From contig NZ_FSRU01000002.1 of NCBI RefSeq assembly GCF_900142845.1, positions 434,001-498,000 on the forward strand: a DNA stretch of 64,000 nucleotides, read 5' to 3'. Positions 6,040 through 49,042 of this stretch are shown here, in pieces. Every line of letters starts with the position of its first letter. The stretch's first letter is position 1. Source of the DNA: Paraburkholderia phenazinium (lineage in GTDB: Bacteria; Pseudomonadota; Gammaproteobacteria; Burkholderiales; Burkholderiaceae). The notes under the pieces were generated by a model that was not told where the DNA came from, did not search any database, and worked only from the letters and a program-made list of their open reading frames with translations. The translations under genes and the position numbers were made by a program.

Positions 6040-6118
6040 GGCGCTGAGACGCGGGTTTGGCCGTCGTTCGGGTTTGGGTTTGAGTTTGAGGTTGCCTGAC
6101 GGCTCGATGCATCGAAAG

Positions 6119-11828: not shown

Positions 11829-12246
11829 CTGGGTTCCCGGGCGAGGGTTTGTTATAGAAGGGGGGACCGAATCGGCATTATTCGGGTTCGATACCTGTTT
11901 CAATGTGCCCCGACGCACTTACGGCAACTGACAAACGCATTACGGCGGCCCGACGATTCATAAGATCAAGCAGGGCGTTTGTCAATTCCAGCGCCATTGC
12001 CCGGGAGGGCGGCAAGTGTCGATATAGTCAGGACACTTATCTATCCTTGGGCCGGCGCGTCTGGGCGCGCGCCGAGCTGCCGCGAGAGATGTCTGGCGGG
12101 CTTGCCTGCAGCGCATCAACACGCCTGCGCGTTCACCGGAAATCCACGTCGGATGTTTGTCGCGCTGAGTGCGGCCGGCCACATAGAGAACGTCGCGTCG
12201 CGCGAATAATGTGTCTTTGGATTTTCTTGCCGCCCGGTCAATCGCA
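11829..12246. promoter_or_regulatory. Divergent control region between duplicated GT4 genes
   Basis: This 418-base non-coding region separates the two divergent GT4 paralogues and must hold promoters for both. It contains an inverted repeat AAGTGTC-N11-GACACTT at 12014-12038 whose spacer is AT-rich (GATATAGTCAG), a geometry suited to a dimeric regulator. I find no confident -35/-10 pair. No gene is visible in it. Confidence 0.45.
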
Positions 12247-13503: not shown

Positions 13504-13532
13504 TACGCCGCGCGCGCTCGCCGGGCGGACCA

Positions 13533-13583
13533 GTGTTCGGCATCGAACGATGCGCCGGTCGCGCTTCGCCTAGCATGTTCTGA
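13533..13583 (+). promoter_or_regulatory. 51-base promoter-like element, copy 1
   Basis: This stretch matches 16129-16179 base for base without gaps at its two ends: GTGTTCGGCATCGAACGAT on the left and CTTCGCCTAGCATGTTCTGA on the right (39 bases, 4 differences), with a divergent 12-base centre. TAGCAT (13571-13576) would serve as a -10 box. No good -35 box is present, so an activator may bind the left part. It lies 34 bases before the membrane protein gene at 13618. Confidence 0.5.
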
Positions 13584-13617
13584 CGCGGCTGTTCCTGCCT
13601 GCCGAACGGAGACCACC

Positions 13618-14778: not shown

Positions 14779-14860
14779 GCGCGCGGTAAAGAAGGGAAAG
14801 CGTACAGCGCGGCCGTTTTACTGTCGGCGCTGACCTGCTTCGTCAATTGTCGAGGTCTGC

Positions 14861-18985: not shown

Positions 18986-21376
18986 CTACCTCGGGTCGAG
19001 CGGATCGGCGGTCTCGTACGTATAAGCGTAGGCGTAATCGTAGGTCCCATAGCGGCCGTTGTGCTTGACGGACACCGCATTCATCACGCCGCCGATCACA
19101 TGCGCCCGCGCCCGGCGCAGCTTCTTGAGCGCCTCGCTGATATGACGTTCCGTATGTGCCCCCGCGCGCATCACCAGCACGGTCGCGCCGGCGATGTTGG
19201 CGATGATCGCCGCATCGGCGACGGCCAGCAGAGGGGGCGTGTCCACGATGACCAGATCGAACTCCTGCGAAAAGCGGCGCAGGATCTCGCTGAAGCGATG
19301 CGAGGTGAGAATCTCCGACGGGTTGGGCGGATAGGCGCCGGCGGCGATGAAGTGCAGTCCGTCGACACCGGTGGCGCGCGCCGCCGTTTCCAGATCGACC
19401 TGTCCGGTCAGCAGTTCGGTCAGGCCGCCGTTCGGCGAGCGGCCGAAGTAGTGAGCGAGCCGGCCGCGGCGCAGATCGGCGTCGATCAGCAGCACCCGCT
19501 TGCCCGATTCCGCAAACAGCGCGGCAAGATTGGCGCACAGGAAGCTCTTGCCGTCGGCCGGCGCGGGGCTGGTGAACGCGATGACGCGGTTCGGCACTTC
19601 GATCAGGCCGAACTGCAAGGTGGCGCGCAACCCGCGCAAGCCTTCGACGGACGTATCGAACGGATGAGTCTTCGCGAGCAGCGAACGGGTCGCCGCGTAC
19701 GGGGCCGGCATCACCGTTTGCGCACCCTGGCGCACCGGCGCCGGCGCAGGAGCGGGCGCCGCGCGCAGACCGAGCAACCTGCCGAGGCTCGCTGGCCCGC
19801 TCGCCAGCACGCCGCTCATGCGCTGTGTGCCGCTCGGCAACGCCGGGTGCCGCAGGCTGGCGATGAGCCGGTCGCCGCGCGACTGCTCGGCGCTGATCGG
19901 AATGGAGCCGAAGATCGGCAACTGAAAGCGGCGTTCGATCATTTCCGGATCGGCCACGCCGGTGAAAAAGGTGCGGCGGCAAAAGGCGAAACCGACGCCC
20001 GCGATGATGCCGAGCAGCGCACCCGCCGAAATGATCAGGCCGCTTTTCGGGCTGACCGGAGCGGAAGGCACCAGCGCCTCGTCGACGATGTGCACGTTGC
20101 CGATCGTCCCGGCACGCGTAATCGACAGTTCCTGGGTCTTGTTCAGCAGTGCCACATAGATTTCTTCCGCCACCTTGGCGTCGCGTTGCAGCGAAACGGC
20201 TTCGCGTTCCGAACCCGGCAAGGTCTTGAAATGGTCTTCGAAGCGGGTCTTCTCCGCGCTCAGCGCGGCGAGCTGCGCATCGACGGTGGCGACCTCGGGA
20301 CTATCGGCCATAAAACGTTGCAGCAATTGCGCGCGCGCGATGCGCAGTCCGGCAATCTGCTTTTCGTACTCGAGTCCGCCCGACAGGTAAACCGAGGCTT
20401 CCTGAGTCGGCTGGAACGAACCCACGCGGGCCTGATACTCCGAGAGCGCCGTTTCCGAGCGCTTCAGGTCGTCGCGCAGACGCGGCAACTCGCTGTTCAG
20501 GAAGGTCAGCATCTTGCTCGCTTCTTCCTGGGCGCGCTCGGTGCGCTGGCGCAGGTACGACTGCGCCACCGCGTTGGTGATCGCGGTGATGGCCTTGGGA
20601 TCCCCGCCCATGTACGAGAGTTGCACGATGCCGGTGTCGTGGCTCTTTTCGACCACTTGCAGACCGCCGGCCAGACCCATGACGGCGTCGAGCTGGTTGG
20701 CGCGCGTGACGAAAAATTCCGTGCCGGCACGGGCGACCAGTTTCGTCACCAGGATCGACACGCCATTGGCTTCGGCGAGCGTGCCCGCCTTGCCGGTCAG
20801 GATCGGCTGCTGGGTGGCGGGGTCGAGCAGTTCGTAGCGTCCGTCGCCGAGCGCGCGCAGCGTCATTTGCACGCCTTCCAGAGACTTTGGCACGCTGATG
20901 GAATCGACGTTGAACTCTTCGCCGCCCCAGGCGTACGAGCGCATGCCGAACCAGGCCGGAAGCGGGTGGCCGGGATGGGCAAAGAGCCGCGAGACGCGCC
21001 CGAGATACGGCATGACGTTGGCCGCCGTGCCGAAGTTGAGCTTGAACTGCTCGACGACCGGCTCGACCACGGCGCGGCTCTTGATGATTTCGATTTCGGC
21101 GTCGGTGCGGATGGTGCTGGTGCCGCCGGACGAGAGCGAAGCGATCGTCGAGACGGCGGACGAACCCGGCGACGACGGATCGATCTGCAGCATCGCATCG
21201 GCCGAATAGATGCGTGTCGCCACATGCGCGTAGATCACCGCGGCGAGCAGCACCGTGGCCGCAATGCCGATTACCCACCAGATCTGTTCGACCACCATGC
21301 GCACCAGGTCGCGCATCACCTCGTCTTCGTCGTTACCGGACGCGGGCGAGAATTCAGGCATGTCATAGGTACTCAT
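18986..21376 (-). CDS. Polysaccharide biosynthesis tyrosine autokinase (Wzc/BceF-type)
   Basis: This 796-residue inner-membrane bacterial tyrosine kinase controls EPS chain length and export. The N-terminal Wzz domain has a membrane segment (WWVIGIAATVLLAAVIYAH), a periplasmic coiled-coil region rich in Glu/Arg (about 270-420) and a second membrane segment (SGLIISAGALLGIIAGVGF). The cytoplasmic kinase shows Walker A APADGKS (about 605-611), Walker A' VLLIDADLR (628-636) and Walker B LVIVDTPP (708-715). A C-terminal cluster of six tyrosines lies between residues 776 and 787 for autophosphorylation. It follows the Wza-type gene by 25 bases. No cognate low-molecular-weight tyrosine phosphatase gene (Wzb/BceD) is in this window. 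Confidence 0.95.
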   Translation of the reverse strand: MSTYDMPEFSPASGNDEDEVMRDLVRMVVEQIWWVIGIAATVLLAAVIYAHVATRIYSADAMLQIDPSSPGSSAVSTIASLSSGGTSTIRTDAEIEIIKSRAVVEPVVEQFKLNFGTAANVMPYLGRVSRLFAHPGHPLPAWFGMRSYAWGGEEFNVDSISVPKSLEGVQMTLRALGDGRYELLDPATQQPILTGKAGTLAEANGVSILVTKLVARAGTEFFVTRANQLDAVMGLAGGLQVVEKSHDTGIVQLSYMGGDPKAITAITNAVAQSYLRQRTERAQEEASKMLTFLNSELPRLRDDLKRSETALSEYQARVGSFQPTQEASVYLSGGLEYEKQIAGLRIARAQLLQRFMADSPEVATVDAQLAALSAEKTRFEDHFKTLPGSEREAVSLQRDAKVAEEIYVALLNKTQELSITRAGTIGNVHIVDEALVPSAPVSPKSGLIISAGALLGIIAGVGFAFCRRTFFTGVADPEMIERRFQLPIFGSIPISAEQSRGDRLIASLRHPALPSGTQRMSGVLASGPASLGRLLGLRAAPAPAPAPVRQGAQTVMPAPYAATRSLLAKTHPFDTSVEGLRGLRATLQFGLIEVPNRVIAFTSPAPADGKSFLCANLAALFAESGKRVLLIDADLRRGRLAHYFGRSPNGGLTELLTGQVDLETAARATGVDGLHFIAAGAYPPNPSEILTSHRFSEILRRFSQEFDLVIVDTPPLLAVADAAIIANIAGATVLVMRAGAHTERHISEALKKLRRARAHVIGGVMNAVSVKHNGRYGTYDYAYAYTYETADPLDPR

Positions 21377-21401: not shown

Positions 21402-22652
21402 TTAAGGAGCCAGTTGCTTGGTGAAGAACAGCGTCTGCAGCGACGGCGTGATCAGATCGAGCAGGCGGTTAAAGCGGGCGGAGCTGGCGATCTGCACATA
21501 GATCACGTCGCGCGCCTGCAACTCGAACTTGGTCATCAGCATCAGCGCGTCGACCTGGGTCATGTCGAGCCGGTACACGTCGGGGGTGGTCAGTTTGGTG
21601 GTCACCTGGCCATTGGCGCCGGCCTCCGGATCGATGCCGCGAATCACGTAGATGACGTGCGGGTCGGACGTGTGGCTGTCGATGCTGCCCGCGCTCGTCA
21701 GCGCATCGGCGAGGGTCAGCCTGCCGCGGTTCATCGGCACGATCGACGGATGCGAGATCTCGCCGAGCACGAACACGCGGCTGTTGGTGCGATCCGGCAC
21801 GTCGATGATGTCGCCGTCGTTGAGCACGACGTTTTGCAGCACGTTGCCGGATTCCAGAATCGAGGCGACGTTGATCGGGTAACGCTGGCCGTTGCGCGTG
21901 AGGCCGACATTCTGCAGGTCGGCGTCCGCATTGGCGCCGCCGGCGCGATTGAGCGCGTCGATGATCGTCAGCGGCACCGCGGTGATCGCCTGGGCCTGCG
22001 GCGCGTGCACGTCGCCCAGCACCTGCACCGCCTTGCTGTTGAAGCCGGTCACGCTGACGTCGAGTTGCGGGCCGCGGATGGTTTTGGCCAGACCGGCGGT
22101 GAGGCGCCTTTGCACCTGCTCGGCCGTCATGCCCTCCACCTTGATCCGTCCGACGCGCGGGAAAAACACCGTGCCGTTGGCGGCGACGCGCAGCGTCAGG
22201 CCGCCGGGCTCGCCGCCGCCGGTGGCGGCCGGGCTGGTGGACGGCGACGCGGCGATGGAATTGCCGCTGCCTTCGCTGCCGCCGCCGGACAGGGCGGGCA
22301 ACGGCGGCGTACCGGCACTGCCGGTCCCGCCGCCTGGCGAGGTCAGCTCGGGGTGATCCCAGACGATCACCTGCAACAGGTCGCCCGGACCGATCCGATA
22401 CTCGTATTGCGCGCGCGTTTTCGGCGTGAGACAGGTGAGCGGACAGGTTGCCGCGGGCGTGGCTTGCAGCGACGTCCGGCTGAAATACCCCGCGTTGATC
22501 GGCTGCACCTGAACCGTTGTGGCAACCGGTTCGGCGTCCTTGTTTTCCTGCAGATTGGTGGTGTCGAGAAAGCCGCCCGGCGTAAACGAACACGCCGAGA
22601 AGAGACACAACGACACAACCGCAAGCCCCGTTACTATCGTTCTGGATATCAT
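21402..22652 (-). CDS. Polysaccharide export outer-membrane lipoprotein (Wza/BceE-type)
   Basis: This 416-residue exporter starts at MISRTIVTGL, with GAGGG 9 bases upstream; upstream in-frame starts would bury the signal peptide. The lipoprotein signal ends in LFSAC, so C21 is the lipidated residue. The Poly_export domain begins YRIGPGDLLQVIVWDHPELT, followed by two SLBB-type repeats (VTGFNSKAVQVLGDVHAPQA, and RVFVLGEISHPSIVPMNRGR). A Gly/Ser-rich insertion of about 45 residues sits within the export domain. The protein forms the outer-membrane channel that works with the adjacent Wzc-type kinase. Confidence 0.94.
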   Translation of the reverse strand: MISRTIVTGLAVVSLCLFSACSFTPGGFLDTTNLQENKDAEPVATTVQVQPINAGYFSRTSLQATPAATCPLTCLTPKTRAQYEYRIGPGDLLQVIVWDHPELTSPGGGTGSAGTPPLPALSGGGSEGSGNSIAASPSTSPAATGGGEPGGLTLRVAANGTVFFPRVGRIKVEGMTAEQVQRRLTAGLAKTIRGPQLDVSVTGFNSKAVQVLGDVHAPQAQAITAVPLTIIDALNRAGGANADADLQNVGLTRNGQRYPINVASILESGNVLQNVVLNDGDIIDVPDRTNSRVFVLGEISHPSIVPMNRGRLTLADALTSAGSIDSHTSDPHVIYVIRGIDPEAGANGQVTTKLTTPDVYRLDMTQVDALMLMTKFELQARDVIYVQIASSARFNRLLDLITPSLQTLFFTKQLAP

Positions 22653-22692
22653 GGTTTCGGTCCCTCGCATTACATGAAACGCCGCACCCCGC

Positions 22693-23637
22693 TCAGCGTT
22701 TTGCTTCCTGCCACGCACCGCGCATCGCGCGAATGCCGATCCACCACTGGCGAAGGGCGAGCGCCGGTCCGGCGCCGCCGATCGCAAGCGTCAGCGCGCG
22801 GGCCAACCCCGGGTCCGCGCGTGTGCCGATCAGCGTTGCATAGACGACGAACGCGCACCGTCCTGGCAGGGACAGGTGTTCGCGCATGATGAGCCGCAGG
22901 TTGAACGACGCGTTATAGAACGCGGCATAGTTGAAAATGAAGCGTTGGTCTTCGTCGCCGCGCGGCGCCGGATAATGCTCGACGAGTATCGACGGGTCGT
23001 AGATCAGGATCCAGCCGCGCCTCACGACGTCGAGGCTGAACTGCATTTCGCAATGCACCTGCGCGCCGGTACCGCGCAGTCTTTCGTCAAAGCGCAGGCC
23101 CGCTACGGCCGCGCGCCTGAATGCCATGTTGACGCCTTTCAGCACGTGCACCGGACGCGGCTCGCCGCAGCCGATGTGATGATTGCCGATGGCGCGTCCA
23201 TACCAGCGCACGAGTCCCACGCGGCCGTTCGCGCCGGCGAGGATCGCGCCTTTTTCGTGCACGATGTCGCGTCCGCCGATGCCGCCCGCGTCGGGCCGGC
23301 GGGCAAGCCCGTCGATGAGGCGCTGCGTCCAGTCGGGATGCGGCGCGGCGTCGTCGTCGGTGAAGCAGACAATGTCGCCTTGCGCCGTTTCAAGCCCGCA
23401 GTTGTAGGCCGCGACCACGCCCGGCGTGCCGACGAACGCGACCCGCAACGCCTCGCTGCCGGCGTTCTGCAGACGTTCACGCAGCAGCGCATGGGTCGCG
23501 GCGTCCTCGGGACGCGCGACGACGATCACTTCGTCGGCCGGACGCAGTTGTGCATCGAGCGCTGCAAGGCAGCGCGCGAGATCCGCCGGCCGGCGGTAGG
23601 TCGGAACGATGACTGAAAGGCGTGGCGCCTCGTTCAC
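22693..23637 (-). CDS. Glycosyltransferase, GT2 family
   Basis: This 314-residue inverting GT-A enzyme begins LSVIVPTYRRPADLARCLAA; the metal-binding DXD motif is FTDDDAAPHPDW, and LKGVNMAFRRAAV and DIVHEKG follow. The C-terminal part carries hydrophobic helices that may associate with the membrane. It sits within the EPS operon between the priming transferase (27-base gap) and the Wza-type gene (40-base gap). It may therefore add an early sugar of the repeat unit; the donor cannot be inferred. Confidence 0.9.
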   Translation of the reverse strand: MNEAPRLSVIVPTYRRPADLARCLAALDAQLRPADEVIVVARPEDAATHALLRERLQNAGSEALRVAFVGTPGVVAAYNCGLETAQGDIVCFTDDDAAPHPDWTQRLIDGLARRPDAGGIGGRDIVHEKGAILAGANGRVGLVRWYGRAIGNHHIGCGEPRPVHVLKGVNMAFRRAAVAGLRFDERLRGTGAQVHCEMQFSLDVVRRGWILIYDPSILVEHYPAPRGDEDQRFIFNYAAFYNASFNLRLIMREHLSLPGRCAFVVYATLIGTRADPGLARALTLAIGGAGPALALRQWWIGIRAMRGAWQEAKR

Positions 23638-23664: not shown

Positions 23665-25068
23665 TTAGTAGGCATTGCGGTTCACAAAGCCCTTGAACAA
23701 CGTGATCAGGACAATCTTGATGTCAAACCAGAACGACCAGTTGTGGATGTAGAAGAGGTCGAACTTGACGCGTGCTTCCATCTTTTCCACCTTGCGTGTC
23801 GCGCCGCGATAGCCGTTCACCTGGGCCCAGCCGGTAATGCCCGGCTTGATGCGGTAGCGATGCATGTAGCCGTAGACGAGGTCCTTGTAGAGATCGTCGT
23901 GTTCGAGCGCATGAGGGCGCGGTCCCACCACCGACATCTGGCCCATCAGCACGTTGTAGAACTGCGGCAGTTCGTCGAGACTCGTGCGGCGCAGGAAGGC
24001 GCCGATCTTCGTCACGCGCACGTCGTGCTGGGTCGCCTGGGTGAGCTGTCCGCCGCTTTCCTCGTGCACGGTCATGGAGCGGAACTTGTAGATCCTGAAC
24101 GTGTGTCCGTCGATGCCCTTGCGCTGTTGCGCGAAGAACACCGGCCCGCGCGTGCTGACCTTGATCGCAATGGCAATCGCCGCGAACAGCGGCGTGAGCG
24201 CAAGCAGGGCGGCGAGCGCAAATAATCGGTCGAACACCAGCTTGGGCCACATTTGCGGCGGCGAGATCGGCGTGCCGGTCAGGTTGATGGTCGTGAGACC
24301 CATCACGTCGACCAGCGAATGGCCGAACAGCGTCATGCTGCGCGTATCCGGAATGAAGCGCAGGTTGACGAAGTCATGCTGGAACGTGCGCGTGAAGCGG
24401 TAGATCGTGCGTTCTTCCGAGAGCGGCAGCGCGAGCCACACTTCGTTGATGTGTTCGGCGCGTACCTTCGCCGCGAACGCATCCAGATCGCTCAACACCG
24501 GCAGACGATTCATGCGCGTGCCGGCCTCGGCGGGCTCGCCCGCTTCGGCGGCTTCGGCCAGCGTGGTGTCGAACACGCAGACGGGCTTGAAGCCGGCCTG
24601 CGGCACCTGCTCCAGATGGGCGAGCAGCATGCGGGCGAAGCCGGGCGAGCCGACCACCGCCACGCTGCGGAAGTTCAGGCCGCGCCGCCGTACCACGCGC
24701 AACATCAGATGGGCGGCGAGCTTGGTCGCGACGATCATGGCGCCGGAGATCAGCGTCGAGTAGCCGAACCAGAGCCGCGACACGGCATCCATCCGGTGCA
24801 GCGTGAAGACCAGCAGCAGGCCCGTCACCACCACGAAGAACCAGCCGGCGCAGACGCGCACCAGCATCTCCGCGAGCGACTTGCCGCGCCAGGTCTCGTA
24901 GATGCCGAAGACCGGGAACAGCAAGAGGACGAGCACGCAGTTAAAGGCGATCAGCAGCCGTTCGGTATCGGCGAGCGAGAGCGTGGCATCGAAGCGCATC
25001 CAGTGAGCGAGCAGTGCACCCGCGATCACGAATAACGCGTCGAGACAGCGCGCAGTATTGCGCAACAT
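23665..25068 (-). CDS. Undecaprenyl-phosphate sugar phosphotransferase (WcaJ/BceB-type)
   Basis: This 467-residue priming enzyme starts EPS repeat-unit synthesis by moving hexose-1-phosphate, usually glucose, onto undecaprenyl phosphate. Four N-terminal membrane helices (first: LDALFVIAGALLAHWM) are followed by a CoA-binding-like Rossmann domain (VAVVGSPGFARMLLAHLEQV). The catalytic bacterial sugar transferase domain (about 265-467) has RLFALAALLALTPLFAAIAI, GPVFFAQQRKGIDG, YKFRSM, RRTSLDELPQFYNVLMGQMS, VGPRPHA and KPGITGWAQVNGYRG. This architecture fits the undecaprenyl-phosphate glucose phosphotransferase subfamily. It is the second gene of the operon, after the Crp-family regulator. Confidence 0.94.
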   Translation of the reverse strand: MLRNTARCLDALFVIAGALLAHWMRFDATLSLADTERLLIAFNCVLVLLLFPVFGIYETWRGKSLAEMLVRVCAGWFFVVVTGLLLVFTLHRMDAVSRLWFGYSTLISGAMIVATKLAAHLMLRVVRRRGLNFRSVAVVGSPGFARMLLAHLEQVPQAGFKPVCVFDTTLAEAAEAGEPAEAGTRMNRLPVLSDLDAFAAKVRAEHINEVWLALPLSEERTIYRFTRTFQHDFVNLRFIPDTRSMTLFGHSLVDVMGLTTINLTGTPISPPQMWPKLVFDRLFALAALLALTPLFAAIAIAIKVSTRGPVFFAQQRKGIDGHTFRIYKFRSMTVHEESGGQLTQATQHDVRVTKIGAFLRRTSLDELPQFYNVLMGQMSVVGPRPHALEHDDLYKDLVYGYMHRYRIKPGITGWAQVNGYRGATRKVEKMEARVKFDLFYIHNWSFWFDIKIVLITLFKGFVNRNAY

Positions 25069-25098: not shown

Positions 25099-25833
25099 TT
25101 AGTTGACGGCCTCGGCCTGATGCAGGCGCGGCAGCAGCCGGTCGAATTCGCGCTTCACGAGCCCGTAGCATTCGCAGGCGCGCGCTTCCAGACCTTGACG
25201 GTCGAGCACCTTGATGTGGCCGCGGCTGTGATGGATCAGGCCTTCGTCGTGCAGCTTGCCGGCCGCTTCGGTGATGCCCTCGCGGCGCACGCCGAGCATG
25301 TCTGCGATCAGTTGCTGCGTGACGGTCAGCTCGTTGGAGGCGACCCGGTCCACTTCGATGAGCAGCCACCGGCACAGTTGCTTGTTGAGCGAGTGGTGAC
25401 GGTTGCAGGCGGCGGTCTGGGCGACCTGGGTGAGCAGCGCGTGCATGTAGAGCATCATCAGGCGGCGCAGCAGGTCGGAGCGCAGGAAATGCTGCTTCAG
25501 GCTCTGGGCGGTCATGCGATAGGCGAAGCCGGCGCTTTGCACCTGCACGCGGTTGGGCATGGTTTCGCCGCCGGTCAATACCGGCACGCCGGTCATGCCT
25601 TCGCGGCCGACCGCGGCGATCTCGACCGAGCTGCCGTCTTCCATCGTCGAGAGCATCGAGATGATCGCAGTGGTCGGAAAGTACACGTGATGAATTCGTT
25701 GTCCTGAATCGCAGAGCAACTGCTCGGTGCGCAGATGGACAAGTTCGAGGTGAGGGGCGAGTGCTTGCCACTCATGCGATGGCAGTGCGCCGAGCAAATG
25801 ATTGCCGTGCAGATCGGATTGAAGCGTTAACAT
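25099..25833 (-). CDS. Crp/Fnr-family transcriptional regulator
   Basis: This 244-residue regulator starts at MLTLQSDLHGNHLL, with GAGG 8 bases upstream; a longer frame to 26010 reads through the control region and is rejected. The N-terminal cyclic-nucleotide-binding beta-barrel contains LCDSGQRIHHVYFPTTAIIS and a truncated phosphate-binding cassette, so classical cAMP binding is doubtful. The C-terminal winged helix has LTVTQQLIADMLGVRREGIT as its recognition region. It is the first gene of the EPS operon, 30 bases before the priming transferase, and so probably regulates EPS synthesis, possibly its own promoter. The ligand is unknown. Confidence 0.92.
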   Translation of the reverse strand: MLTLQSDLHGNHLLGALPSHEWQALAPHLELVHLRTEQLLCDSGQRIHHVYFPTTAIISMLSTMEDGSSVEIAAVGREGMTGVPVLTGGETMPNRVQVQSAGFAYRMTAQSLKQHFLRSDLLRRLMMLYMHALLTQVAQTAACNRHHSLNKQLCRWLLIEVDRVASNELTVTQQLIADMLGVRREGITEAAGKLHDEGLIHHSRGHIKVLDRQGLEARACECYGLVKREFDRLLPRLHQAEAVN

Positions 25834-26445
25834 GATCGGTCCTCGCACGAAGTCGCTGACGCGACTCGTTGGTTTTTTTACCCGCCTCTGCATCCCTGGT
25901 GTATTGCCGCCTGGCGAGCGGCTATGGACGAACAGTGCGGGCCCCGTATGGCCTTTTTGCGCCGTCGTTTGAATGGTTGTTGGCGTCGGCGCTAGTGCTG
26001 CGCTTCTCATTTAGCGAGGACTGTGCCATGCAGGTCCAAAGCAAGCACTGGTGCGGCGCAGCGAAAAGCGGCATGGCGTTTTGCGAGGCAAAACGTGCGT
26101 TTTTGTTTCAATTTTGTACGACGCCCCAAGGCCACCCAGGGTTTGCCAGAGACTGTTAAATTCAACGCAAGTGATTGATAGAATTCGTTTAAAACGCGTT
26201 CTCGTAGAATCTGCATGAGGTCTTTCGCAGGGGGCGGGCTACGTGTGGTGGCGTTTGGCGCGGCGGTCCGGGATGACTCAGATTTGATTCATATGTGTTC
26301 CACCGGTTAGGTGCCCTGGCGCACGGAAGGAATTTTTGGCGAAGCGTGCGGGCGCTTGTGCTGACGTGATGACAGCGTCCGCGAAACTGCAGCAGAACGA
26401 GCGTCTGCGAGCCTTGCAGGGGAGCGGTGTGGGAGACGGGCGGAT
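25834..26445. promoter_or_regulatory. Control region upstream of the EPS operon (612 bases)
   Basis: No convincing gene is present. The segment 26095-26215 is much more AT-rich than its surroundings and probably holds the promoter of the minus-strand EPS operon. A perfect 8-bp inverted repeat CGTTTTGC-GAG-GCAAAACG spans 26077-26095; it could be an operator or, on the plus strand, a terminator-like hairpin because TGCGTTTTTGTTT follows. I cannot assign -35/-10 boxes. The stretch 26216-26445 shows nothing recognisable. Confidence 0.5.
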
Positions 26446-29025
26446 TCAGCCGTAGAACACGGGCGCGCTTGAGTTGATGGCGCGTACTTCGCCCGAGGGT
26501 GCGGGGTGTGTTGCGTCGGCGTTCATTGCCGGCAAAGGGCGCAGTGCGATCGTGCGCGGCTCGCCAGGCGGCAGATGAAACCAGTTGTCGACGGCACGGT
26601 AGTGCATATCTGCAACGTTGACGAAGCGCGCGAAGCGCTTCGCTTCGACGATCAGTTGCCAGCCGCTACCGGTGGCTTCGAGCGTGGCGCTAAGGCCCGT
26701 GTCGTAACGTTCGGCAGCGCGCCGCTCGGGCAGATGAAACGCTTGCGAGAGGATCTGTCTGCTCGCCGGATCGCGCAGCGTGGCAAACGTCACATCATGC
26801 GAACGTGGACCGAAACGATACGCATGCGTGAGATCGAAGAACTGCCCCAGACACTCCGCTGCCGCGAGACGCTGCTTGCTGCGCGGCGCGAGTTCCACCA
26901 GAGAGGTTGCGCCCGCAACCTTTACCGCGCCGTCGCGCAGGCACACCAGTTCAAGCTGTGCCGTCACGCTCTCGCAGGTCTCGTTGATGAGATGCAGGTC
27001 GAGTCCGTTGAGGCCTTCGTCGGTCATGACCACCTGAACCGGACGCAGCACCTGGGCGAGCGCGTGCCACGCGCTCTTGGGCCGTCCGGTCGAATCCACG
27101 ATGCCCCAGCCGGCGCCCGCGCGCAGATCCTGGAACTGCCAGACGAGGGCGCCGCCGCACGGCGAACCGGCGCGCCGCCATTCGGCGAATACCTCGGTCA
27201 TCAGCTCGGCCACCACCGCTCTCGAGAGCTCCAGATAGCGCTGCGGATCCTCGTAGCGCAGGCGGGCTGGCTCGATGCCATAGAGCGTGGCCAGGTAGTG
27301 GTCGCGCACGTCGTCGAAGTCCCAGCCGGCGCCCTGGTCGCGCGGCACGGCCGCCTTCCATCGCGGATCGTGAACTTGAATCGTGCCGAGCGCCTGCTGC
27401 AGGGTGGCGTCGTCGGGCACGTTGGCGAAGGCCAGGCATTCGGCTGCGAAGCGCACTTCGGCGCGCCGCACGTCGTCGAGTGGCCGTTGATACGCACCCA
27501 CGCCGTAGTAGTGCGTGATGCCGGTGCGAGTCGAAAACGGCCACACGCCCCCGGTCGGAGAATTGTTCACATACGTTACATCGGGCCGTTCCTGCGCGGC
27601 GAGACCGGCCAGGCATTCGGTGAAAAGAGGTTGCGCGCGCATCGAAGGCGGCAGGCCGAACATCGCAGCTTGCTGATCGACCTCGCTGCCGCCGCACAGC
27701 ACGGCCAGGGATGCGAAGCGGCGCGTGCGGGCCAGAAACTGCGTCGCCTCGCGACGCACGGAGGCGGCGAAGGCTTCGTCGGTGGGGTAGTCGAAGTTCG
27801 CAAAAGCGAAATCCTGCCAGATCAGGATTCCGAAACGGTCGGCGAGCGCATAGAAGGCGTCCGATTCGTACACCATCGTGCCGCCCACGCGCAGCATGTT
27901 CAGGCCGGCGTCGCGTGCGAGCGTGAAGGCGTGTTCGAGTTGCTGTGGCGTACCGGCGAGCGTGACGAGATCGGCACTGGTCCAGCAGGCGCCGCGGCAG
28001 AACAGCGGCACGCCGTTCACACGCAGGGCGAAGCCGTCGCCGTCCGCGCCGCGGTCCACTTCGATCTCTCTGAAGCCGAGCCGGCCCAGTTCGAAGCGCT
28101 GGCCGCCCAGTTCCAGCGCGACAGAATGCAGTGTGGGCGCGCCATGGGTATGCGGCCACCAGCGTTCGGCGCGCGGCACGCGCAGTTCGCCCGTGAGCGT
28201 GACTGCGTCGCGCCACTCGAGAGACGCACGGGCCGCGCCGCAATTCAACGTCGCGGGGACGGTCTCGCTCTGCGGATGCACGAAGCGCAGCGTGAGCGAC
28301 ACGACGCCGTCGTCGCCGTCGACGCGGCTCGCGAGGTCGATCGTATCGAAGGCTTCGCCGGCATCGCCGAGCAGTTCGATGGGGCGCCACGGACCGACGG
28401 CCTGCAGCGGCGGACACCAGCCGGGCATGTGTCCGAGCAGCGTCGTGCGGACGTTGCGCAAGGTGGGCGGCGAGGCGAGGCGAGGGCGCCAGCGGGCGCG
28501 CGAGCGGCGGGCGGCGAGCAACGGCGCGAGCGAACGGAAGCACAGGGCGAGCGTGGCCGGTCCGGTCAGCTCGAGCTCGAGATCGTGCGCGACGAACATC
28601 GAATCCGAGTCGAGCCGCTTCACGCCGTCGAGCCACACTTCGGCGAGCGTCGCGAGGCCGTGCAGACGCAGACGTTGCGGACCGCTGCCGGTCAGCGCGG
28701 GCGTCAGGCTCAGGCGATACCAGTGATCGTCGAAGGCAAACGGCGGCGGACGATCCGCGTCGAGCTGTCCAGCGGCCCGCCACGCGGCTGCCACCGTGCC
28801 GGGCACCTGCGCATCCAGCCAGCCCCCGGCAGGCCAGTCAGCCGGCGATACGCACGCGCCGGCGGCCGTGCTCACGCATTGCCAGCCCGTGTCGAGCGCA
28901 CGCGGCCAGACGGTGCGGGCCTGCGTACCGTCCGCGGTTGCGAGCCCGCCGTGAGTTGTCCCGGCGGCGGGCGGTGCAGCGGCTTCGCGCACCAGGTCAG
29001 GCGGGGTGGTGGGCAAGGCGCGCAC
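26446..29025 (-). CDS. Glycoside hydrolase family 2 protein (beta-mannosidase-like)
   Basis: This 859-residue protein starts at a GTG with GGAG 5 bases upstream, 24 bases after the DUF1839 gene. Domain order fits GH2: sugar-binding jelly roll (DHWYRLSLTP, LHGLATLAEVWLDG), immunoglobulin-like domain, then a TIM barrel beginning near FCRGACWTSAD. The general acid/base glutamate is probably in LCGGSEVDQQ, in place of the usual NGNNE. The nucleophile candidate lies in VRFAAECLAFANVP. No signal peptide is seen, so it may act in the cytoplasm on oligosaccharide or carrier-linked sugar. It ends a five-gene unit of carrier-protein chemistry, an unusual partner for a glycosidase. Confidence 0.85.
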   Translation of the reverse strand: MRALPTTPPDLVREAAAPPAAGTTHGGLATADGTQARTVWPRALDTGWQCVSTAAGACVSPADWPAGGWLDAQVPGTVAAAWRAAGQLDADRPPPFAFDDHWYRLSLTPALTGSGPQRLRLHGLATLAEVWLDGVKRLDSDSMFVAHDLELELTGPATLALCFRSLAPLLAARRSRARWRPRLASPPTLRNVRTTLLGHMPGWCPPLQAVGPWRPIELLGDAGEAFDTIDLASRVDGDDGVVSLTLRFVHPQSETVPATLNCGAARASLEWRDAVTLTGELRVPRAERWWPHTHGAPTLHSVALELGGQRFELGRLGFREIEVDRGADGDGFALRVNGVPLFCRGACWTSADLVTLAGTPQQLEHAFTLARDAGLNMLRVGGTMVYESDAFYALADRFGILIWQDFAFANFDYPTDEAFAASVRREATQFLARTRRFASLAVLCGGSEVDQQAAMFGLPPSMRAQPLFTECLAGLAAQERPDVTYVNNSPTGGVWPFSTRTGITHYYGVGAYQRPLDDVRRAEVRFAAECLAFANVPDDATLQQALGTIQVHDPRWKAAVPRDQGAGWDFDDVRDHYLATLYGIEPARLRYEDPQRYLELSRAVVAELMTEVFAEWRRAGSPCGGALVWQFQDLRAGAGWGIVDSTGRPKSAWHALAQVLRPVQVVMTDEGLNGLDLHLINETCESVTAQLELVCLRDGAVKVAGATSLVELAPRSKQRLAAAECLGQFFDLTHAYRFGPRSHDVTFATLRDPASRQILSQAFHLPERRAAERYDTGLSATLEATGSGWQLIVEAKRFARFVNVADMHYRAVDNWFHLPPGEPRTIALRPLPAMNADATHPAPSGEVRAINSSAPVFYG

Positions 29026-29049: not shown

Positions 29050-30066
29050 TCAAAACGCGAGCGCGGCAAGCGGCGGCATGGTCTTGTCGTAGGCGTTTTC
29101 AAGCACGTCGAAGCAGTCGTTGCACAGGTCGTGGCGACCGCGCGCCATGGCCCGCACGAGGCGAAACTGCATCACCATCGACTCCGAGGCGATCTTCTGC
29201 GCCGAACCCGCAATCTCCGGAGGAATGTCGAAGCCTTGCACGGACAGCCACTGCAGGTACTTCGCCAGGAACTCGAAGTTCGCGCCCAGTTGCCGCATCA
29301 GGTTGAACGAATAGAGGTGGAAAAATTTCTCGCCGCGCGCGAGCACCGTGTCGAGCTGCTGCGGAAACTCGGCGCGCCACTGCGTGATGGGGTTGCGCAT
29401 GGGACGGCGCGCCAGATGGGTACACAGCAGTTCCGCGGACGCTTCCGCGAGCGCGGTGCCTTCGAGCGCGGGCCGCACCTGCTTGGCGAATTCGACGTAC
29501 GGGAACAGCAGGTCCGCCTGCCCGCTGAACTGCGGCAGCTTGCGAAACACCCCTTCGTAGTCCTCGCCTTCGAGCAGGTGATAACCGGTGTTGTGGAAAT
29601 AGCCGAGGCGCTGCCCCGCCGGATCGATGAAGTCGATGCCGACGGTGGTCTTCGGATGTTCGCGCCGGTACGAAGTGGCGCGTGTGTTCGGCAGATAGTA
29701 GCCGTCCACCTCGACCAGCACCGTGTGGCCGCGCAGGGTCTGCGCCAGCACGCGGTCTTCCAGCGAGTCGTAGATCGCCAGTTCCTGCACCTGGGTGCCG
29801 TAGAGCCGCTCGAGATCCTCCAGCGGGAACTTGAAGAAGGTGAACTGGTCGCCCTCGAAGTCCTGCGTCACGGTGAACGCGAAGGCTGCCCGCGGGTCGA
29901 GCCCGAAGCCGTGCAGCAGCTCGATCCACAGGTCAACGTAGCAATTGGTCTCCTGCCAGACCCGGTCGCCCTGATGCAAGGCATGCGGCTGGTGCGAGCG
30001 CATCGGGTGGGGCATGGCCAGCGCGCGGAGCGAGCCGGTGAGCGCGGTCGTGAGCGGGGGCGTCAT
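29050..30066 (-). CDS. DUF1839 family protein (putative papain-like acyltransferase)
   Basis: This 338-residue protein of uncharacterised family DUF1839 overlaps the upstream ligase by ATGA. Visible are ETNCYVDLWIELLHGFGLDP (C42), VLVEVDGYYLPNTRA (116-130), REHPKTTVGIDFIDP (H137, D148) and NTGYHLLEGEDYEGVF. This layout (Cys early in a helix, a VDxYYLP strand, then His and Asp) resembles BtrH of butirosin synthesis, which moves an amino-acyl group from a carrier protein to an aminoglycoside. I infer a Cys-His-Asp acyltransferase that unloads the carrier protein. The family call is fairly firm; the catalytic proposal is inference. The C-terminal half is helical. Confidence 0.8.
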   Translation of the reverse strand: MTPPLTTALTGSLRALAMPHPMRSHQPHALHQGDRVWQETNCYVDLWIELLHGFGLDPRAAFAFTVTQDFEGDQFTFFKFPLEDLERLYGTQVQELAIYDSLEDRVLAQTLRGHTVLVEVDGYYLPNTRATSYRREHPKTTVGIDFIDPAGQRLGYFHNTGYHLLEGEDYEGVFRKLPQFSGQADLLFPYVEFAKQVRPALEGTALAEASAELLCTHLARRPMRNPITQWRAEFPQQLDTVLARGEKFFHLYSFNLMRQLGANFEFLAKYLQWLSVQGFDIPPEIAGSAQKIASESMVMQFRLVRAMARGRHDLCNDCFDVLENAYDKTMPPLAALAF

Positions 30067-31094
30067 GCGGCGCCTCCCGCGAGTCCTTGCAGCACGCGCG
30101 CCCGGGTGTCGCCCCACAGCAGCGCGCGCACGTCGTCGGGCCAGACGTTGACGTCGAGGCCGTGATGGCGGAACAGCGCCAGCGTGATGCGCTCCATGCC
30201 GAAGCCCACGCAACCGGTATGCGCCACCGAGCCGTCCGCGCATTCGATCTTCCAGATCGCGCCGAAGTGGTCCATGTGATAGTTGAACGACAGGCAGGCC
30301 GTCTTGCCGTCGGCATTGGCCACCGGAATCAGCAGCTCGAACTTGAGCGCCTGGGCGCGCTGGCTGTCCGCGACGATCTTGCCGCCACGGCCGAAGAACG
30401 GATCGTTGGCGAGGTCGACGTCGACCGGCAACTGCAGCATGTGCACGAGCGCCGAGCCGCGTTCGATCCACATCTGACGAAACGCCATCACCTGGTCCGG
30501 GCTGCCGAGGCGCACGTATTCGCGCTGGCGGAACATCTGCATACGGGCCGGATCGAGCGACGGTTCGTGGCGGAAGCAATACGACAGCACGTCGATGGTG
30601 CGGCCTTCTTCAGGCAGCGGACCGCGCCGTGCCATCACCGGATAGATCGGATAGCAGGCAGCCGGCGTCAGCACCACGCGGGTGGGTTTCTGCTGCGCCA
30701 TCCACTCGTCGCTGCGGTCGTCGTCGCGCTCGGTCATGGCGTCGTCGAGCGCGCGCAACAGGCGCTGGTGGCCCATGTCGTTGCCGCAGAACGAATGGAT
30801 CGTGCCGGCGAGATTCGGGAAGCTCTTCAGATATTCGCTATCTTCGAAGTCGGTGCGGCGCATGGCCGGCGGAAAGCGCAGCACTTCCGGCTGCTGGTCG
30901 GCGCCGAGATGGGTAATCGCCACGTTCAGCCGTTCGACCACGTCCTCGAACACCTGGCTGCGGCCATACAGGCCGTTTTCGCCGGTATCGATCAGGATGC
31001 CCTTCTCGAGCAGTTCGTCGCGAAAGCTGGGGGCGGCCGGGGCGGCTTCGGCTTGCGCGGCGGCGAGGGCGGCGGTGTCGGTCATCGTGTTCAT
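30063..31094 (-). CDS. Amino acid:[carrier protein] ligase (class II aaRS-like)
   Basis: This 343-residue enzyme resembles the catalytic core of atypical seryl-tRNA synthetases but lacks a tRNA-binding domain. Characterised homologues (Bradyrhizobium, Agrobacterium) activate glycine or alanine with ATP and load it onto the phosphopantetheine arm of a small carrier protein. Class II motif 2 is FRQREYVRLG (188-197) and motif 3 is GFGMERITLALF (297-308). C147, E192 and C295 match in spacing the Cys-Glu-Cys zinc site known from the Bradyrhizobium enzyme. Its carrier protein and a flavoprotein are encoded just upstream, and the downstream gene overlaps by 4 bases. The substrate is likely a small amino acid. 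Confidence 0.92.
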   Translation of the reverse strand: MNTMTDTAALAAAQAEAAPAAPSFRDELLEKGILIDTGENGLYGRSQVFEDVVERLNVAITHLGADQQPEVLRFPPAMRRTDFEDSEYLKSFPNLAGTIHSFCGNDMGHQRLLRALDDAMTERDDDRSDEWMAQQKPTRVVLTPAACYPIYPVMARRGPLPEEGRTIDVLSYCFRHEPSLDPARMQMFRQREYVRLGSPDQVMAFRQMWIERGSALVHMLQLPVDVDLANDPFFGRGGKIVADSQRAQALKFELLIPVANADGKTACLSFNYHMDHFGAIWKIECADGSVAHTGCVGFGMERITLALFRHHGLDVNVWPDDVRALLWGDTRARVLQGLAGGAA

Positions 31095-31095
31095 C

Positions 31096-32370
31096 TCAGG
31101 CTCTCCCCGGGGCGGCCGGACGCTGCGCCAGCAGCAGGCTCGCGGTGTTCTGTGCGATGCGGTCGTTGTTGATCATCAGCGGTGCGGAATACAGGTCGCG
31201 CAGATGGCGGCCCACGCTGTACTCGGTGCCGTTCTTGTAACCGGCCATGCCGCAGATCATCAGCACTTCGTGGACCACCTGCAGCGCGGTCGTCGAAATG
31301 CTGGTTTTCAACGTGTTCATGTCGGAGGCGAAGCCGAGCAGCGCCGACAGCGGCAGATCGGCCTGGCAGGCGCCCTGTTTGGCGTGATGCGCGACACGGG
31401 CGGCGTCGAGTGCGACGGCGAGGCGCGCCTGCATCATCTGCAGGAGGCCTACGGCTTCGGCGAGACGCAGGCCGGCCGGCGGCACCGAACCGGGTTTGGC
31501 GCGCGCCTGGGCGCGGAAAAACGCTTTCGCGCGATTGACCGCATCGGTGGCGATGCCGGTCCATACCGCGGCCCACAGCGTGTGCGAGATCGGCAGCATG
31601 GTCTGGTCGGCGATCTCGGCGAACGGCGTCGGCAGGATCTGCTCGGCCAGGCCGGTCGCGACGAGGCGAAAGCCCTCGCTGCAGGTGCCGCGCATGCCCA
31701 TCGAATCCCAGCCGCCGCGTTTTTCGAGCGTCGTTTCGGCGCGCAACGCGACGATCATCACCTGGTCGGCCGCAGCCGATTCCGCCGTGCGGCGTGCCGT
31801 GACGAGAATGCCGTCGGCCTGCGCGCCGTAGGAGATGGTCGGCGCCAGCTTTTCGATGCGCAGGCGCTCGCCGTCGAGTTCGACCGAGCAGGCGCTGGTG
31901 CGCATGTTGCCGCCAATGGTCTCCTCGGAGGTCGCCGAGGCGAGCAGCCATTGCTGTTCGACCAGTTGCGCGAGGAGGGCCTGGTGCCACGGCGAGGCGC
32001 TGCCATGCGCTTCGATGCAGGCTACCTGGATCTGGTGCATCGCGTACACCATCGCGGTCGAAGCACAGCCTTGCGCGAGGATTTCGCAAATCGCGGCGAC
32101 GTCGGCGAGCGGCAGGCCCGCGCCGCCGAACGCTTGCGGCACCAGCGCGGAGAGCAGCCGCTCGCGGCGCAGGGCGTCGAACGCTTCGCTCGGAAAGCGG
32201 GCTTCGCGGTCCACGGCGTCCGCATGCTGGGCGGCGACCTGCGCCGCGCGCTGGGCGGCGGCGCGCCAGCCGGCGTCGGCTTCGACGGCGGCGAGCGACG
32301 CGCCGCCGGCCGTCGGGTCGGGAGGTGGGCCGTCGAGCGGGCCCGCGTCGTGCATCAGCGGGGCGTTCAT
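31096..32370 (-). CDS. Acyl-CoA-dehydrogenase-like flavoprotein
   Basis: This 424-residue protein has the acyl-CoA dehydrogenase fold: a helical N-terminal domain (LVPQAFGGAGLPLADVAAIC), a central beta domain (SATSEETIGGNMR, GGWDSMGMRGTCSEGF) and a helical FAD domain (VHEVLMICGMAGYKNGTEYS). The catalytic glutamate of the classical enzymes, in the EGT motif near the C-terminus, is missing; the equivalent stretch reads SAPLMINNDRI. It overlaps the carrier-protein gene by ATGA and ends 1 base before the ligase start. I infer that it oxidises an aminoacyl group on the carrier, as PltE/PigA-type dehydrogenases oxidise prolyl-carrier proteins. Confidence 0.88.
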   Translation of the reverse strand: MNAPLMHDAGPLDGPPPDPTAGGASLAAVEADAGWRAAAQRAAQVAAQHADAVDREARFPSEAFDALRRERLLSALVPQAFGGAGLPLADVAAICEILAQGCASTAMVYAMHQIQVACIEAHGSASPWHQALLAQLVEQQWLLASATSEETIGGNMRTSACSVELDGERLRIEKLAPTISYGAQADGILVTARRTAESAAADQVMIVALRAETTLEKRGGWDSMGMRGTCSEGFRLVATGLAEQILPTPFAEIADQTMLPISHTLWAAVWTGIATDAVNRAKAFFRAQARAKPGSVPPAGLRLAEAVGLLQMMQARLAVALDAARVAHHAKQGACQADLPLSALLGFASDMNTLKTSISTTALQVVHEVLMICGMAGYKNGTEYSVGRHLRDLYSAPLMINNDRIAQNTASLLLAQRPAAPGRA

Positions 32371-32618
32371 GCGGCCGCCTTTGCCTGTTGTAGCTCGCTC
32401 ACCGCGGCGGCCAGCGAATCGATGCTGGAAAAGAGCCGGCGGGTCAGCATGCGGTCGGGAATCTCGATGTCGAACTCGTCTTCGATCGCGAGCATCAGGT
32501 GCACGGTCGCGAGCGACGACAGGCCCGCCGCGTAGAGGTCGGCGTCGTCCGCCAGGGTGTCGGGCGGCACGTCGAGACGTGCGGACTCGGAAAGAATGCG
32601 TCGCAGTGCAGTTTTCAT
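32367..32618 (-). CDS. Acyl carrier protein (aminoacyl carrier)
   Basis: This 83-residue carrier protein is first in the unit. It starts at MKTALRRILS (GAGG further upstream); an extension to 32642 is possible but unlike carrier proteins. The four-helix pattern is clear. The phosphopantetheine attachment serine is S35 in LYAAGLSSLATVHLM, a variant of the usual DSL motif. An acidic helix II/III (EDEFDIEIPDRML) follows. A basic/Ala-rich tail ends the protein. Its position beside the ligase gene makes it the likely acceptor of the activated amino acid. Confidence 0.9.
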   Translation of the reverse strand: MKTALRRILSESARLDVPPDTLADDADLYAAGLSSLATVHLMLAIEDEFDIEIPDRMLTRRLFSSIDSLAAAVSELQQAKAAA

Positions 32619-47173: not shown

Positions 47174-49042
47174 ATGAGACCTGTCGTCTTCGACGGCTGT
47201 GCGGGTTGGCTTCATGCGGGGAAAGGACGCCACGGCGTGGTGCTCTGCAATCCGTTCGGCTACGACGCGTTGTGCACCCACCGGGGCTGGCGCCGGCTGG
47301 CGGAACGGCTCGCCGCGGCGGGCATGCCGGTGCTGCGCTTCGACTACCCGGGAACCGGCGATTCGGCCGGCAGCGAAGAAGAGCGTGGCCGGGTCGATGC
47401 ATGGCTCGCGAGCATCGCGTCGGCGATCCGCTATCTGCGCAGCAGCACGGGCGTCGAGCGGGTGTCGCTGTGCGGACTGCGCCTCGGCGCCACGCTTGCC
47501 GCACTTGCGGCGCAACGCAGCGGTGAGGTGGAGTCGCTGGTGCTTCTTTCGCCGGCGCTGTCGGGGAAGAACTATCTGCGCGAATTGCGGGCGCATCGCC
47601 AGAGCTGGTTGAGCACACCCGACGGCATCAACGCACAGCCCATTGCCGAGGGTACGGCCTATGTCGAGGCCTTCGGCTTCGGCGTGCACGGCGACGACAT
47701 CGCGCAACTCGCGGCCATCGACTTGCGCCGCGATACCACGGCGCCCGCATCTCGCGTGATGATGCTCGATGCCAGCGACCGGGCGCGCGCCGCTGCGCTT
47801 GTGGATCACTACGCGGCGCATGGCGTGGCCGTTGAACGGCGTGCGTTCGACGAGGCCGATCGTTTTCTCATCGAAGCGCTTTATAGCGTGGAACCGGTCG
47901 AGGCGTTTTCCGCGGTTGCGGAATGGCTTGCCGCGCTGCCCGAGGCGAAGCGGGATGCAGGTGACGCGCATGGAGCGCATGACACGCATGACACGGCCAG
48001 CCACGCGGCCCTGCCTGCCGCCGGCCGCGAAGAAGAGGACCCCGAACAACCGTTGCTGCCTTTGCCGGAGGCGCAAGCCGTCGAGCGTCCAGTGGTTTTC
48101 GGTGCGTACTTCGGCGTGCATTGCCAGCCCGATACCCCGCGCGCCGAGGCGCCGGCCGTGCTGTTCATCAATACCGGCGCCAGTCATCACATTGGCGACG
48201 GCCGCATTTTCGTCCTGTTCGCCCGCCGGCTCGCCGCGCTTGGCATCGCCTCGCTGCGCATGGATCTGGGCGGCCTTGGCGACAGTACGCCGGCGGCGCA
48301 GAGCGTCACGCTCGATACGATCTACGCGCCGCAGTCCTGCGCCGATGCCATGGCCGGCGCGGACTGGCTGGTCGCGCAGGGGCACCGCCAGGTGGTGACG
48401 TTCGGGGTCTGCGGCGGGGCGTTCGTCGGCTTGCATGCCTGTGCACACCATCCCCAGATGACCGCCTGTTTCGGCGTGAATCTGCAGAAGTTCATCTGGG
48501 ATGGCGAAGCGCGCTCGCCCGGCACGGCCGGTCTCGCCTCGTCGCGAGTCTTGCGGCGCTCGGCGCTGCGGCTCGACAAATGGAAGCGTGTGCTGCGCGG
48601 CGAAACCTCGCTGCTGCGGGTGTTGCGCGGCCTGTCGCAACGCGGCGCGCGCAGCGTGCTGTTGCGCGTGGCCGAGCGGATCGAGCAGGTCACCGGGCTC
48701 TCCCTCGTGCGCAACGAGGCGGTTGGGCTGCTGCAGAAGCTCGAGAGAAAAGGCGTCGACGTGCATCTCGTGTACGGCGAATACGACCTCGGGGTCGACG
48801 AACTGAAGATCCAGTTCGGCGCGAGGCTGCGCGCGCTGCGGCGCTTTTCGCGGGTCCGGGTGCTGACTTTGCCGACACTGGATCATGCGTTGTTCACCCG
48901 CGAGGCGCGCGAGGCGGCCATGGCCGATGCGCAGGCGTGGTTGCTCGAGCGCTGCGTGGCGTCGCCCGCCGCGTCCGGACATCACGGCGCGGTGCGCCCG
49001 GCCGGCGCGCCGGTGGGCGGCGTGCTCGGCAATGCGCCGTAA
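47174..49042 (+). CDS. Two-domain alpha/beta hydrolase (exosortase-system hydrolase-like)
   Basis: This 622-residue protein has two tandem alpha/beta-hydrolase domains joined by a Glu/Pro/His-rich linker (about 255-305). Domain 1 shows LRFDYPGTGDSAG and a nucleophile elbow CGLRLG (100-105) with arginine (R103) where serine is expected. Domain 2 shows LRMDLGGLGDS and FGVCGGAFVG with cysteine C413 at the nucleophile position. These GLR and GxC elbows resemble the exosortase-A-associated hydrolase 2 and 1 families, usually separate proteins in EPS loci. No exosortase is in the window. The AGGA site precedes the ATG. It probably acts on activated acyl or lipid-linked intermediates; the reaction is unknown. 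Confidence 0.78.
   Translation: MRPVVFDGCAGWLHAGKGRHGVVLCNPFGYDALCTHRGWRRLAERLAAAGMPVLRFDYPGTGDSAGSEEERGRVDAWLASIASAIRYLRSSTGVERVSLCGLRLGATLAALAAQRSGEVESLVLLSPALSGKNYLRELRAHRQSWLSTPDGINAQPIAEGTAYVEAFGFGVHGDDIAQLAAIDLRRDTTAPASRVMMLDASDRARAAALVDHYAAHGVAVERRAFDEADRFLIEALYSVEPVEAFSAVAEWLAALPEAKRDAGDAHGAHDTHDTASHAALPAAGREEEDPEQPLLPLPEAQAVERPVVFGAYFGVHCQPDTPRAEAPAVLFINTGASHHIGDGRIFVLFARRLAALGIASLRMDLGGLGDSTPAAQSVTLDTIYAPQSCADAMAGADWLVAQGHRQVVTFGVCGGAFVGLHACAHHPQMTACFGVNLQKFIWDGEARSPGTAGLASSRVLRRSALRLDKWKRVLRGETSLLRVLRGLSQRGARSVLLRVAERIEQVTGLSLVRNEAVGLLQKLERKGVDVHLVYGEYDLGVDELKIQFGARLRALRRFSRVRVLTLPTLDHALFTREAREAAMADAQAWLLERCVASPAASGHHGAVRPAGAPVGGVLGNAP

What the first reader, a model, noticed from the sequence alone, without database searches (positions are those of the whole stretch)
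29050..32618. Amino acid:[carrier protein] ligase operon with its own flavoprotein and a BtrH-like transferase
Carrier protein, acyl-CoA-dehydrogenase-like flavoprotein, ligase and DUF1839 are joined by overlaps or a 1-base gap. The ligase family is known to charge carrier proteins with Gly or Ala, but what happens next is unknown. DUF1839 shows C42, VDGYYLP, H137 and D148 in the arrangement of BtrH, which transfers amino-acyl groups from a carrier. I propose a load-oxidise-transfer module that attaches an unusual amino-acyl group to an acceptor, possibly an amino sugar of this EPS.
Basis: partly seen in the sequence, partly recalled or inferred. Interest (0 to 1): 0.85.

Follow-up and report, generated by a model that had tools for sequence, protein, structure and literature searches.

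The report
Carrier-protein amino-acyl transfer operon
A gene set shared by many soil and plant-associated bacteria appears to load an amino acid onto a carrier protein, alter it and attach it to another molecule, probably a sugar; its general role was already guessed in print, but what it makes is still unknown.

The parts
32367..32618 (-). Carrier protein (84 aa from the ATG); phosphopantetheine site Ser35, codon 32514-32516
   Evidence: PF00550, NF005480 128 bits against 72; Ser35 invariant in 20 aligned carriers
31096..32370 (-). Flavoprotein of the acyl-CoA dehydrogenase fold, without the usual catalytic Glu
   Evidence: PF02771; no acidic residue between positions 392 and 403 in 27 sequences; Foldseek's first rows are the FMN monooxygenases TdsC and DszC, with true dehydrogenases close behind
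30063..31094 (-). Amino acid:[carrier protein] ligase
   Evidence: NF005479 535 bits, cut-off 357; PDB relatives 4h2w (E 4e-88) and 3mey
29050..30066 (-). DUF1839, predicted carrier-dependent amide synthase; Cys42 codon 29941-29943, Thr140 codon 29647-29649, His158 codon 29593-29595
26446..29025 (-). GH2 beta-mannosidase-like glycosidase, fifth gene of the cassette (start GTG as listed; exact start not tested)
   Evidence: PF17753, PF22666; solved beta-mannosidases, best E 2.7e-42; Glu448 and Glu529 invariant in 16 of 16
47174..49042 (+). Two-domain alpha/beta hydrolase, possible sixth partner (about 15 kb away here, adjacent to the cassette elsewhere)
   Evidence: TIGR03100 and TIGR03101, both below cut-off; a relative in 9 of 15 other phylum loci and directly after GH2 in L219, L220, L226
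18986..25068 (-). Polysaccharide genes beside the cassette: Wzc-like kinase (18986-21376), export protein (21402-22787), priming glucose phosphotransferase (23665-25068)

Best explanation
The five genes form a carrier-protein aminoacylation module. The ligase activates a small amino acid (Gly or Ala) and loads it on the carrier protein (inferred from the family). The flavoprotein oxidises the carrier-bound amino acid, more likely by flavin oxygenation than by classical desaturation (inferred). DUF1839 takes the acyl group onto Cys42 and passes it to an amine, as CcbD does with an amino sugar (fold shown on a predicted model; reaction inferred). GH2 trims or recycles a sugar that carries or receives the group (inferred, the weakest step). 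In this window the most likely acceptor is an amino sugar or another amine in a surface-polysaccharide pathway.
Against: No reaction, acceptor or modified glycan was observed. No amino-sugar enzyme turned up among the window proteins scanned (not every window gene was scanned). In several records the flanks read show little or nothing for polysaccharides: none in L221 (Caballeronia) and L224 (R. binae), one cut GumC-like gene in L222 (Shinella), an EPS-production repressor only in L225 (R. gallicum). In six Cupriavidus or Cupriavidus-like loci the operon copy lacks Cys42, while a stand-alone copy has it. Intact DUF1839 persists where the ligase was not found, and five genomes have an intact ligase without DUF1839.
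Confidence: 0.55

Rival explanations
1. The module makes a small diffusible amino-acid-derived metabolite, with DUF1839 as release or coupling enzyme; the polysaccharide neighbourhood is a regional accident in Burkholderiaceae.
For: On a Priestia plasmid relatives of the carrier, flavoprotein and ligase lie with acpS, an ATP-grasp protein, a thioesterase-domain protein, an alanine permease, an alanine racemase and a D-Ala-D-Ala ligase, which looks like a small-molecule cluster with self-protection. The carrier resembles the cispentacin carrier AmcB, below cut-off. Some cassettes sit away from polysaccharide genes.
Against: A GH2 glycosidase belongs to the cassette in 16 of 16 sampled genomes; the nearest solved fold works on an amino sugar; the five conserved genes include no exporter.
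Confidence: 0.25
2. DUF1839 has a role that does not need the ligase: it uses another acyl carrier, or removes a group, for example as protection against the cassette's product.
For: Ten of 279 Burkholderiaceae genomes have DUF1839 and no ligase match; in six the match is nearly full length without stops (G421, G504, G558, G626, G649, G677), and four of these keep Cys42. Five genomes of named loci with intact DUF1839 show no ligase (L117, L120, L127, L128, L160); L160 appears to be the same genome as G558. Rhizobium plasmid L218 lacks the three upstream genes but keeps DUF1839 on a backbone 89-94% identical to that of L224, which has them. Pairwise dN/dS is 0.08 for orphan pair L127-L128 and 0.10-0.18 for six pairs of Cys-less Caballeronia paralogues.
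Against: The reverse occurs: G426, G456, G459, G478 and G639 have an intact ligase and no DUF1839. Other pairs look relaxed (L116-L121 0.38, L197-L199 0.44). Some losses may be recent, and most genomes are drafts. The 80 named loci were found through DUF1839, a biased sample.
Confidence: 0.15
3. The flavoprotein is a true dehydrogenase and the module attaches a desaturated acyl group.
For: The best PDB profile hit is titled a short-chain acyl-CoA dehydrogenase (7p98, E 4e-17); FadE16 is the best NCBIfam row, below cut-off.
Against: No acidic residue at the canonical base position in 27 of 27 sequences (dehydrogenase motif recalled). A relative of the flavoprotein also accompanies the second ligase type in 12 of 12 loci; I take that type, unverified, to include the Bradyrhizobium enzymes recalled to charge Gly, which has no beta carbon to desaturate.
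Confidence: 0.15

Closest known systems
CcbD/LmbD lincosamide condensing enzymes (PDB 7yn1, 7yn2, 9dkr, 9dks)
   Different: 13% identity; Cys-His-Glu triad against a proposed Cys-Thr-His; donor loaded there by an adenylation domain (recalled), here by a tRNA-synthetase-like ligase
CtaG (PDB 9quz) and AziU3 (PDB 7wuw); pathway names closthioamide and azinomycin are recalled
   Different: 12-14% identity; other pathways
BtrH (PF14399)
   Same: A weak profile alignment puts Cys42 and the LP motif on the cysteine and LPY of seven BtrH-like proteins (E 0.05)
   Different: Not a member by sequence: BtrH_N matched 2 of 28 DUF1839 proteins, best E 0.11
Solved amino acid:[carrier protein] ligases (Bll0957, PDB 3mey, 4h2w)
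   Same: Same ligase family
   Different: In 12 sampled loci of the ligase type without DUF1839, GH2 is absent too; the carrier gene points the other way in 10 and was not found in 2. That Bll0957 belongs to this type was not tested
Prediction in PMC2922099 (note in proof, 2010; that section read)
   Same: Ligase, carrier, redox enzyme, an uncharacterised protein (Atu2574) and a glycosidase proposed to put a modified amino acid on a surface amino sugar
   Different: No structure for the uncharacterised protein; that Atu2574 is DUF1839 is my inference, not checked

Membership tests
Amino acid:[carrier protein] ligase | NF005479 profile over its cut-off | tested here: met
   535 against 357 bits
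Amino acid:[carrier protein] ligase | Zinc ligands (recalled as Cys131, Glu176, Cys279 of Bll0957) conserved | tested here: met
   Cys147, Glu192, Cys295 invariant in 22 aligned sequences with the same spacing; the residues' role is recalled
Amino acid:[carrier protein] ligase | Charges a carrier protein | not testable with these tools
   needs an assay
CcbD/CtaG-fold carrier-dependent amide synthase | Two-domain fold over the whole protein | tested here: met
CcbD/CtaG-fold carrier-dependent amide synthase | Cysteine at the start of the first core helix | tested here: met
   Cys42 starts helix 42-53; but it is absent in some operon copies and in stand-alone paralogues elsewhere
CcbD/CtaG-fold carrier-dependent amide synthase | Canonical Cys-His-Asp/Glu triad | tested here: inconclusive
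   Hand alignment and spacing are mixed; PMC10318531 reports C(T/S)H; model coordinates not available
CcbD/CtaG-fold carrier-dependent amide synthase | Acyl transfer from carrier to amine | not testable with these tools
   needs an assay
BtrH (Pfam BtrH_N) | PF14399 profile match | tested here: not met
   The window protein matched only PF08893 at E 1 or better; 2 of 28 relatives matched BtrH_N, best E 0.11
Acyl-CoA dehydrogenase | Acyl-CoA_dh_N domain | tested here: met
   51.4 bits, cut-off 22.9
Acyl-CoA dehydrogenase | Catalytic glutamate at the canonical C-terminal place | tested here: not met
   Ile400 and Asn402 lie there; no acidic residue in 27 sequences; the dehydrogenase motif is recalled and the alignment by hand
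GH2 beta-mannosidase | Both catalytic glutamates | tested here: met
   Glu448 and Glu529 invariant in 16 and aligned near the corresponding Glu of solved beta-mannosidases; which Glu are catalytic is recalled

The most novel reading that the evidence does not exclude
The flavoprotein N-oxygenates carrier-bound Gly or Ala, and DUF1839, with an unusual Cys-Thr-His active site, installs the N-hydroxy (or further oxidised) aminoacyl group on an amino sugar of a surface glycan, a decoration I know of nowhere. DUF1839 paralogues without Cys42 act as partner subunits, and orphan DUF1839 genes serve a second, ligase-independent acyl donor.
Probability: 0.2. Interest if true: 0.8.

Novelty: new member of a known kind. 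Interest (0 to 1): 0.55.

Why it matters
[quoted passage not shown] A structural link between their partner DUF1839 and an enzyme that moves an amino acid from a carrier to an amino sugar makes that question testable with five purified proteins. The natural copies with and without Cys42, and the orphan genes, offer ready-made comparisons.

Tried and rejected
BtrH membership by sequence: rejected. Asp148 as catalytic residue: rejected on conservation. My own idea that DUF1839 is always the last gene kept: weakened, because five genomes have an intact ligase without DUF1839 and the two of those loci that I put in a ligase tree fall inside the DUF1839-linked clade. Phage origin: no DUF1839 match in the phage collection. 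Sequence search of the PDB with DUF1839 gave no meaningful row. A PDB search with a BtrH-like protein, meant to bring in CcbD or CtaG letters, found neither. A paper search on CtaG listed nothing relevant. A search for Atu2573, Atu2574, bll0957, bll0956 or PF08893 listed four papers; I opened PMC2922099 and PMC10318531 and saw the other two in the listing only. Searches with DUF1839 found one paper and none in combination. Gly against Ala specificity of this ligase was not decided.
Full report
WHAT IS THERE. On the minus strand, 32618 to 29050, lie a carrier protein, a flavoprotein of the acyl-CoA dehydrogenase fold, an amino acid:[carrier protein] ligase and DUF1839, with 4-base overlaps at the first and third junctions and one base between the second and third genes. 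Families: PF00550 and NF005480 for the carrier, PF02771 for the flavoprotein, NF005479 (535 bits, cut-off 357) for the ligase, PF08893 (445 bits) for DUF1839. A GH2 glycosidase starts 24 bases after DUF1839 on the same strand; it aligns to solved beta-mannosidases (best E 2.7e-42).

CONSERVATION. Of 398 genomes of the phylum, 16 have DUF1839; 44 have a ligase match at E 0.001 and 28 over the cut-off; all 16 have both. In all 16 the order is carrier, flavoprotein, ligase, DUF1839, GH2. Twelve further genomes with a ligase over the cut-off have the flavoprotein beside it but no DUF1839 or GH2 in the stretch of up to 20 kb read; their carrier gene points the other way in 10 and was not found in 2. 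Of 80 named Burkholderiaceae loci found through DUF1839 (the best 80 of 558), 62 hold a match to each of the five genes and 18 do not, one of these (L134) at a contig end. Fifty-nine plasmid records hold DUF1839. The stretches read in Azospirillum (L219, L226), Mycetohabitans (L220), Caballeronia (L221), Shinella (L222) and Rhizobium (L223, L225) show the same five genes; Rhizobium L224 lacks GH2.

FLAVOPROTEIN. Twenty-seven aligned relatives have no acidic residue between positions 392 and 403, where dehydrogenases carry their base (motif recalled). Foldseek lists FMN monooxygenases first with dehydrogenases close behind. The profile search lists a dehydrogenase first, then TdsC, DnmZ and others including a nitrososynthase. 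The scores do not decide; the missing base favours oxygenation.

GH2 AND HYDROLASE. Glu448 and Glu529 are invariant in 16 GH2 proteins. A two-domain alpha/beta hydrolase lies near the cassette in 9 of 15 other phylum loci and 15 of 80 named loci, and in 0 of 12 loci of the second ligase type. It directly follows GH2 in L219, L220 and L226. In the window it is about 15 kb away.

CONTEXT. The window carries a priming glucose phosphotransferase, an export protein, a Wzc-like kinase, a flippase-like protein, glycosyltransferases and a GDP-mannose enzyme. Among the 80 named loci a relative of the priming transferase is found in 55, of the Crp-like regulator in 65, of the GNAT protein in 55, of the Wzc-like kinase in 38. 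In the 15 other phylum loci these relatives are few (3, 4, 2 and 2). Elsewhere the cassette lies beside nif genes, plasmid genes or amino-acid transport. A Tsukamurella plasmid has a ligase and carrier inside an EPS-type cluster, with no flavoprotein or DUF1839 found in the stretch. A Priestia plasmid has carrier, flavoprotein and ligase with alanine racemase, alanine permease and D-Ala-D-Ala ligase.

RESULTS THAT DO NOT FIT. (a) In G255, G328, G415, G416, L156 and C. metallidurans CH34 the operon copy of DUF1839 lacks Cys42 and a stand-alone copy has it. In nine Caballeronia genomes (G405 to G413) the operon copy has Cys42 and the stand-alone copy lacks it. Two multi-copy genomes do not follow this: in G401 both copies keep Cys42, and in G414 both of the two copies read do (a third was not read). 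(b) Of 279 Burkholderiaceae genomes, 129 have DUF1839, 125 a ligase match (123 over cut-off), 119 both. Ten have DUF1839 only: in G421, G504, G558, G626, G649 and G677 the match is nearly full length without stops, in G572, G573, G585 and G678 it is partial. Of the six, G558, G626, G649 and G677 keep Cys42; G504 has Ala and G421 Arg. Six genomes have the ligase only: G518 has it in pieces, and G426, G456, G459, G478 and G639 have it intact. The loci of G426 and G456 fall in the DUF1839-linked clade of a ligase tree, on long branches (support 0.99 as printed after re-rooting). GH2, searched in the same 279 genomes, matches in 117: 115 of them have DUF1839, and the two without it (G633, G676) show only fragments. 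(c) Rhizobium plasmid L218 lacks the three upstream genes but keeps DUF1839 on the backbone of L224 (89-94% identity on both sides). (d) Three loci with flavoprotein and carrier but no ligase have Ala, Ser or Arg for Cys42 (L192, L197, L199), two of them also Arg for His158; L193, with flavoprotein but no carrier or ligase found, keeps Cys42. The genome of L197 (G444) has a weak ligase match elsewhere, below cut-off. (e) Pairwise dN/dS: Cys-less Caballeronia paralogues 0.10-0.18 (six pairs), pairs with an orphan or ligase-less copy 0.04-0.44, complete cassettes 0.04-0.13 (four pairs). The method is simple and the dates of decay are unknown.

PRIOR WORK. PMC2922099 (note in proof, that section read) proposed in 2010 that this ligase, its carrier, a redox enzyme, an uncharacterised protein and a glycosidase attach an amino acid, modified probably by monooxygenation, to a surface amino sugar. 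PMC9437257 (passages) states that the role of the loading is unknown.

VERDICT. A real, conserved five-gene module whose transfer step now has a precise structural parallel. The reaction, donor, acceptor and glycan link remain inference.

Noticed in passing
L218 (Rhizobium sp. NZLR1 p3) 8941-9927 against L224 (R. binae p4) 3602-6930: Closely similar plasmid backbones; one lacks carrier, flavoprotein and ligase but keeps DUF1839.
   Followed up: partly
L227 (Priestia megaterium plasmid) 866-14689: Carrier, flavoprotein and ligase sit with acpS, an ATP-grasp protein, a thioesterase-domain protein, alanine permease, alanine racemase and D-Ala-D-Ala ligase: looks like an alanine-derived small-molecule cluster with self-protection genes.
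   Followed up: partly
L228 (Tsukamurella tyrosinosolvens plasmid) 4731-15454: Ligase and carrier with a phosphopantetheinyl transferase inside an EPS-type cluster, without flavoprotein or DUF1839 in the stretch.
   Followed up: partly
L050, L157, L230 and related loci: Two DUF1839 copies a few kb apart: the operon copy lacks Cys42, the stand-alone copy has it.
   Followed up: partly
L067 8552-9427: A 291-aa protein without Pfam match directly follows the second-type ligase, where DUF1839 would be in the other type.
   Followed up: partly
window 25099-26010: A Crp-like regulator beside the cassette, with a relative near it in 65 of 80 named loci.
   Followed up: partly
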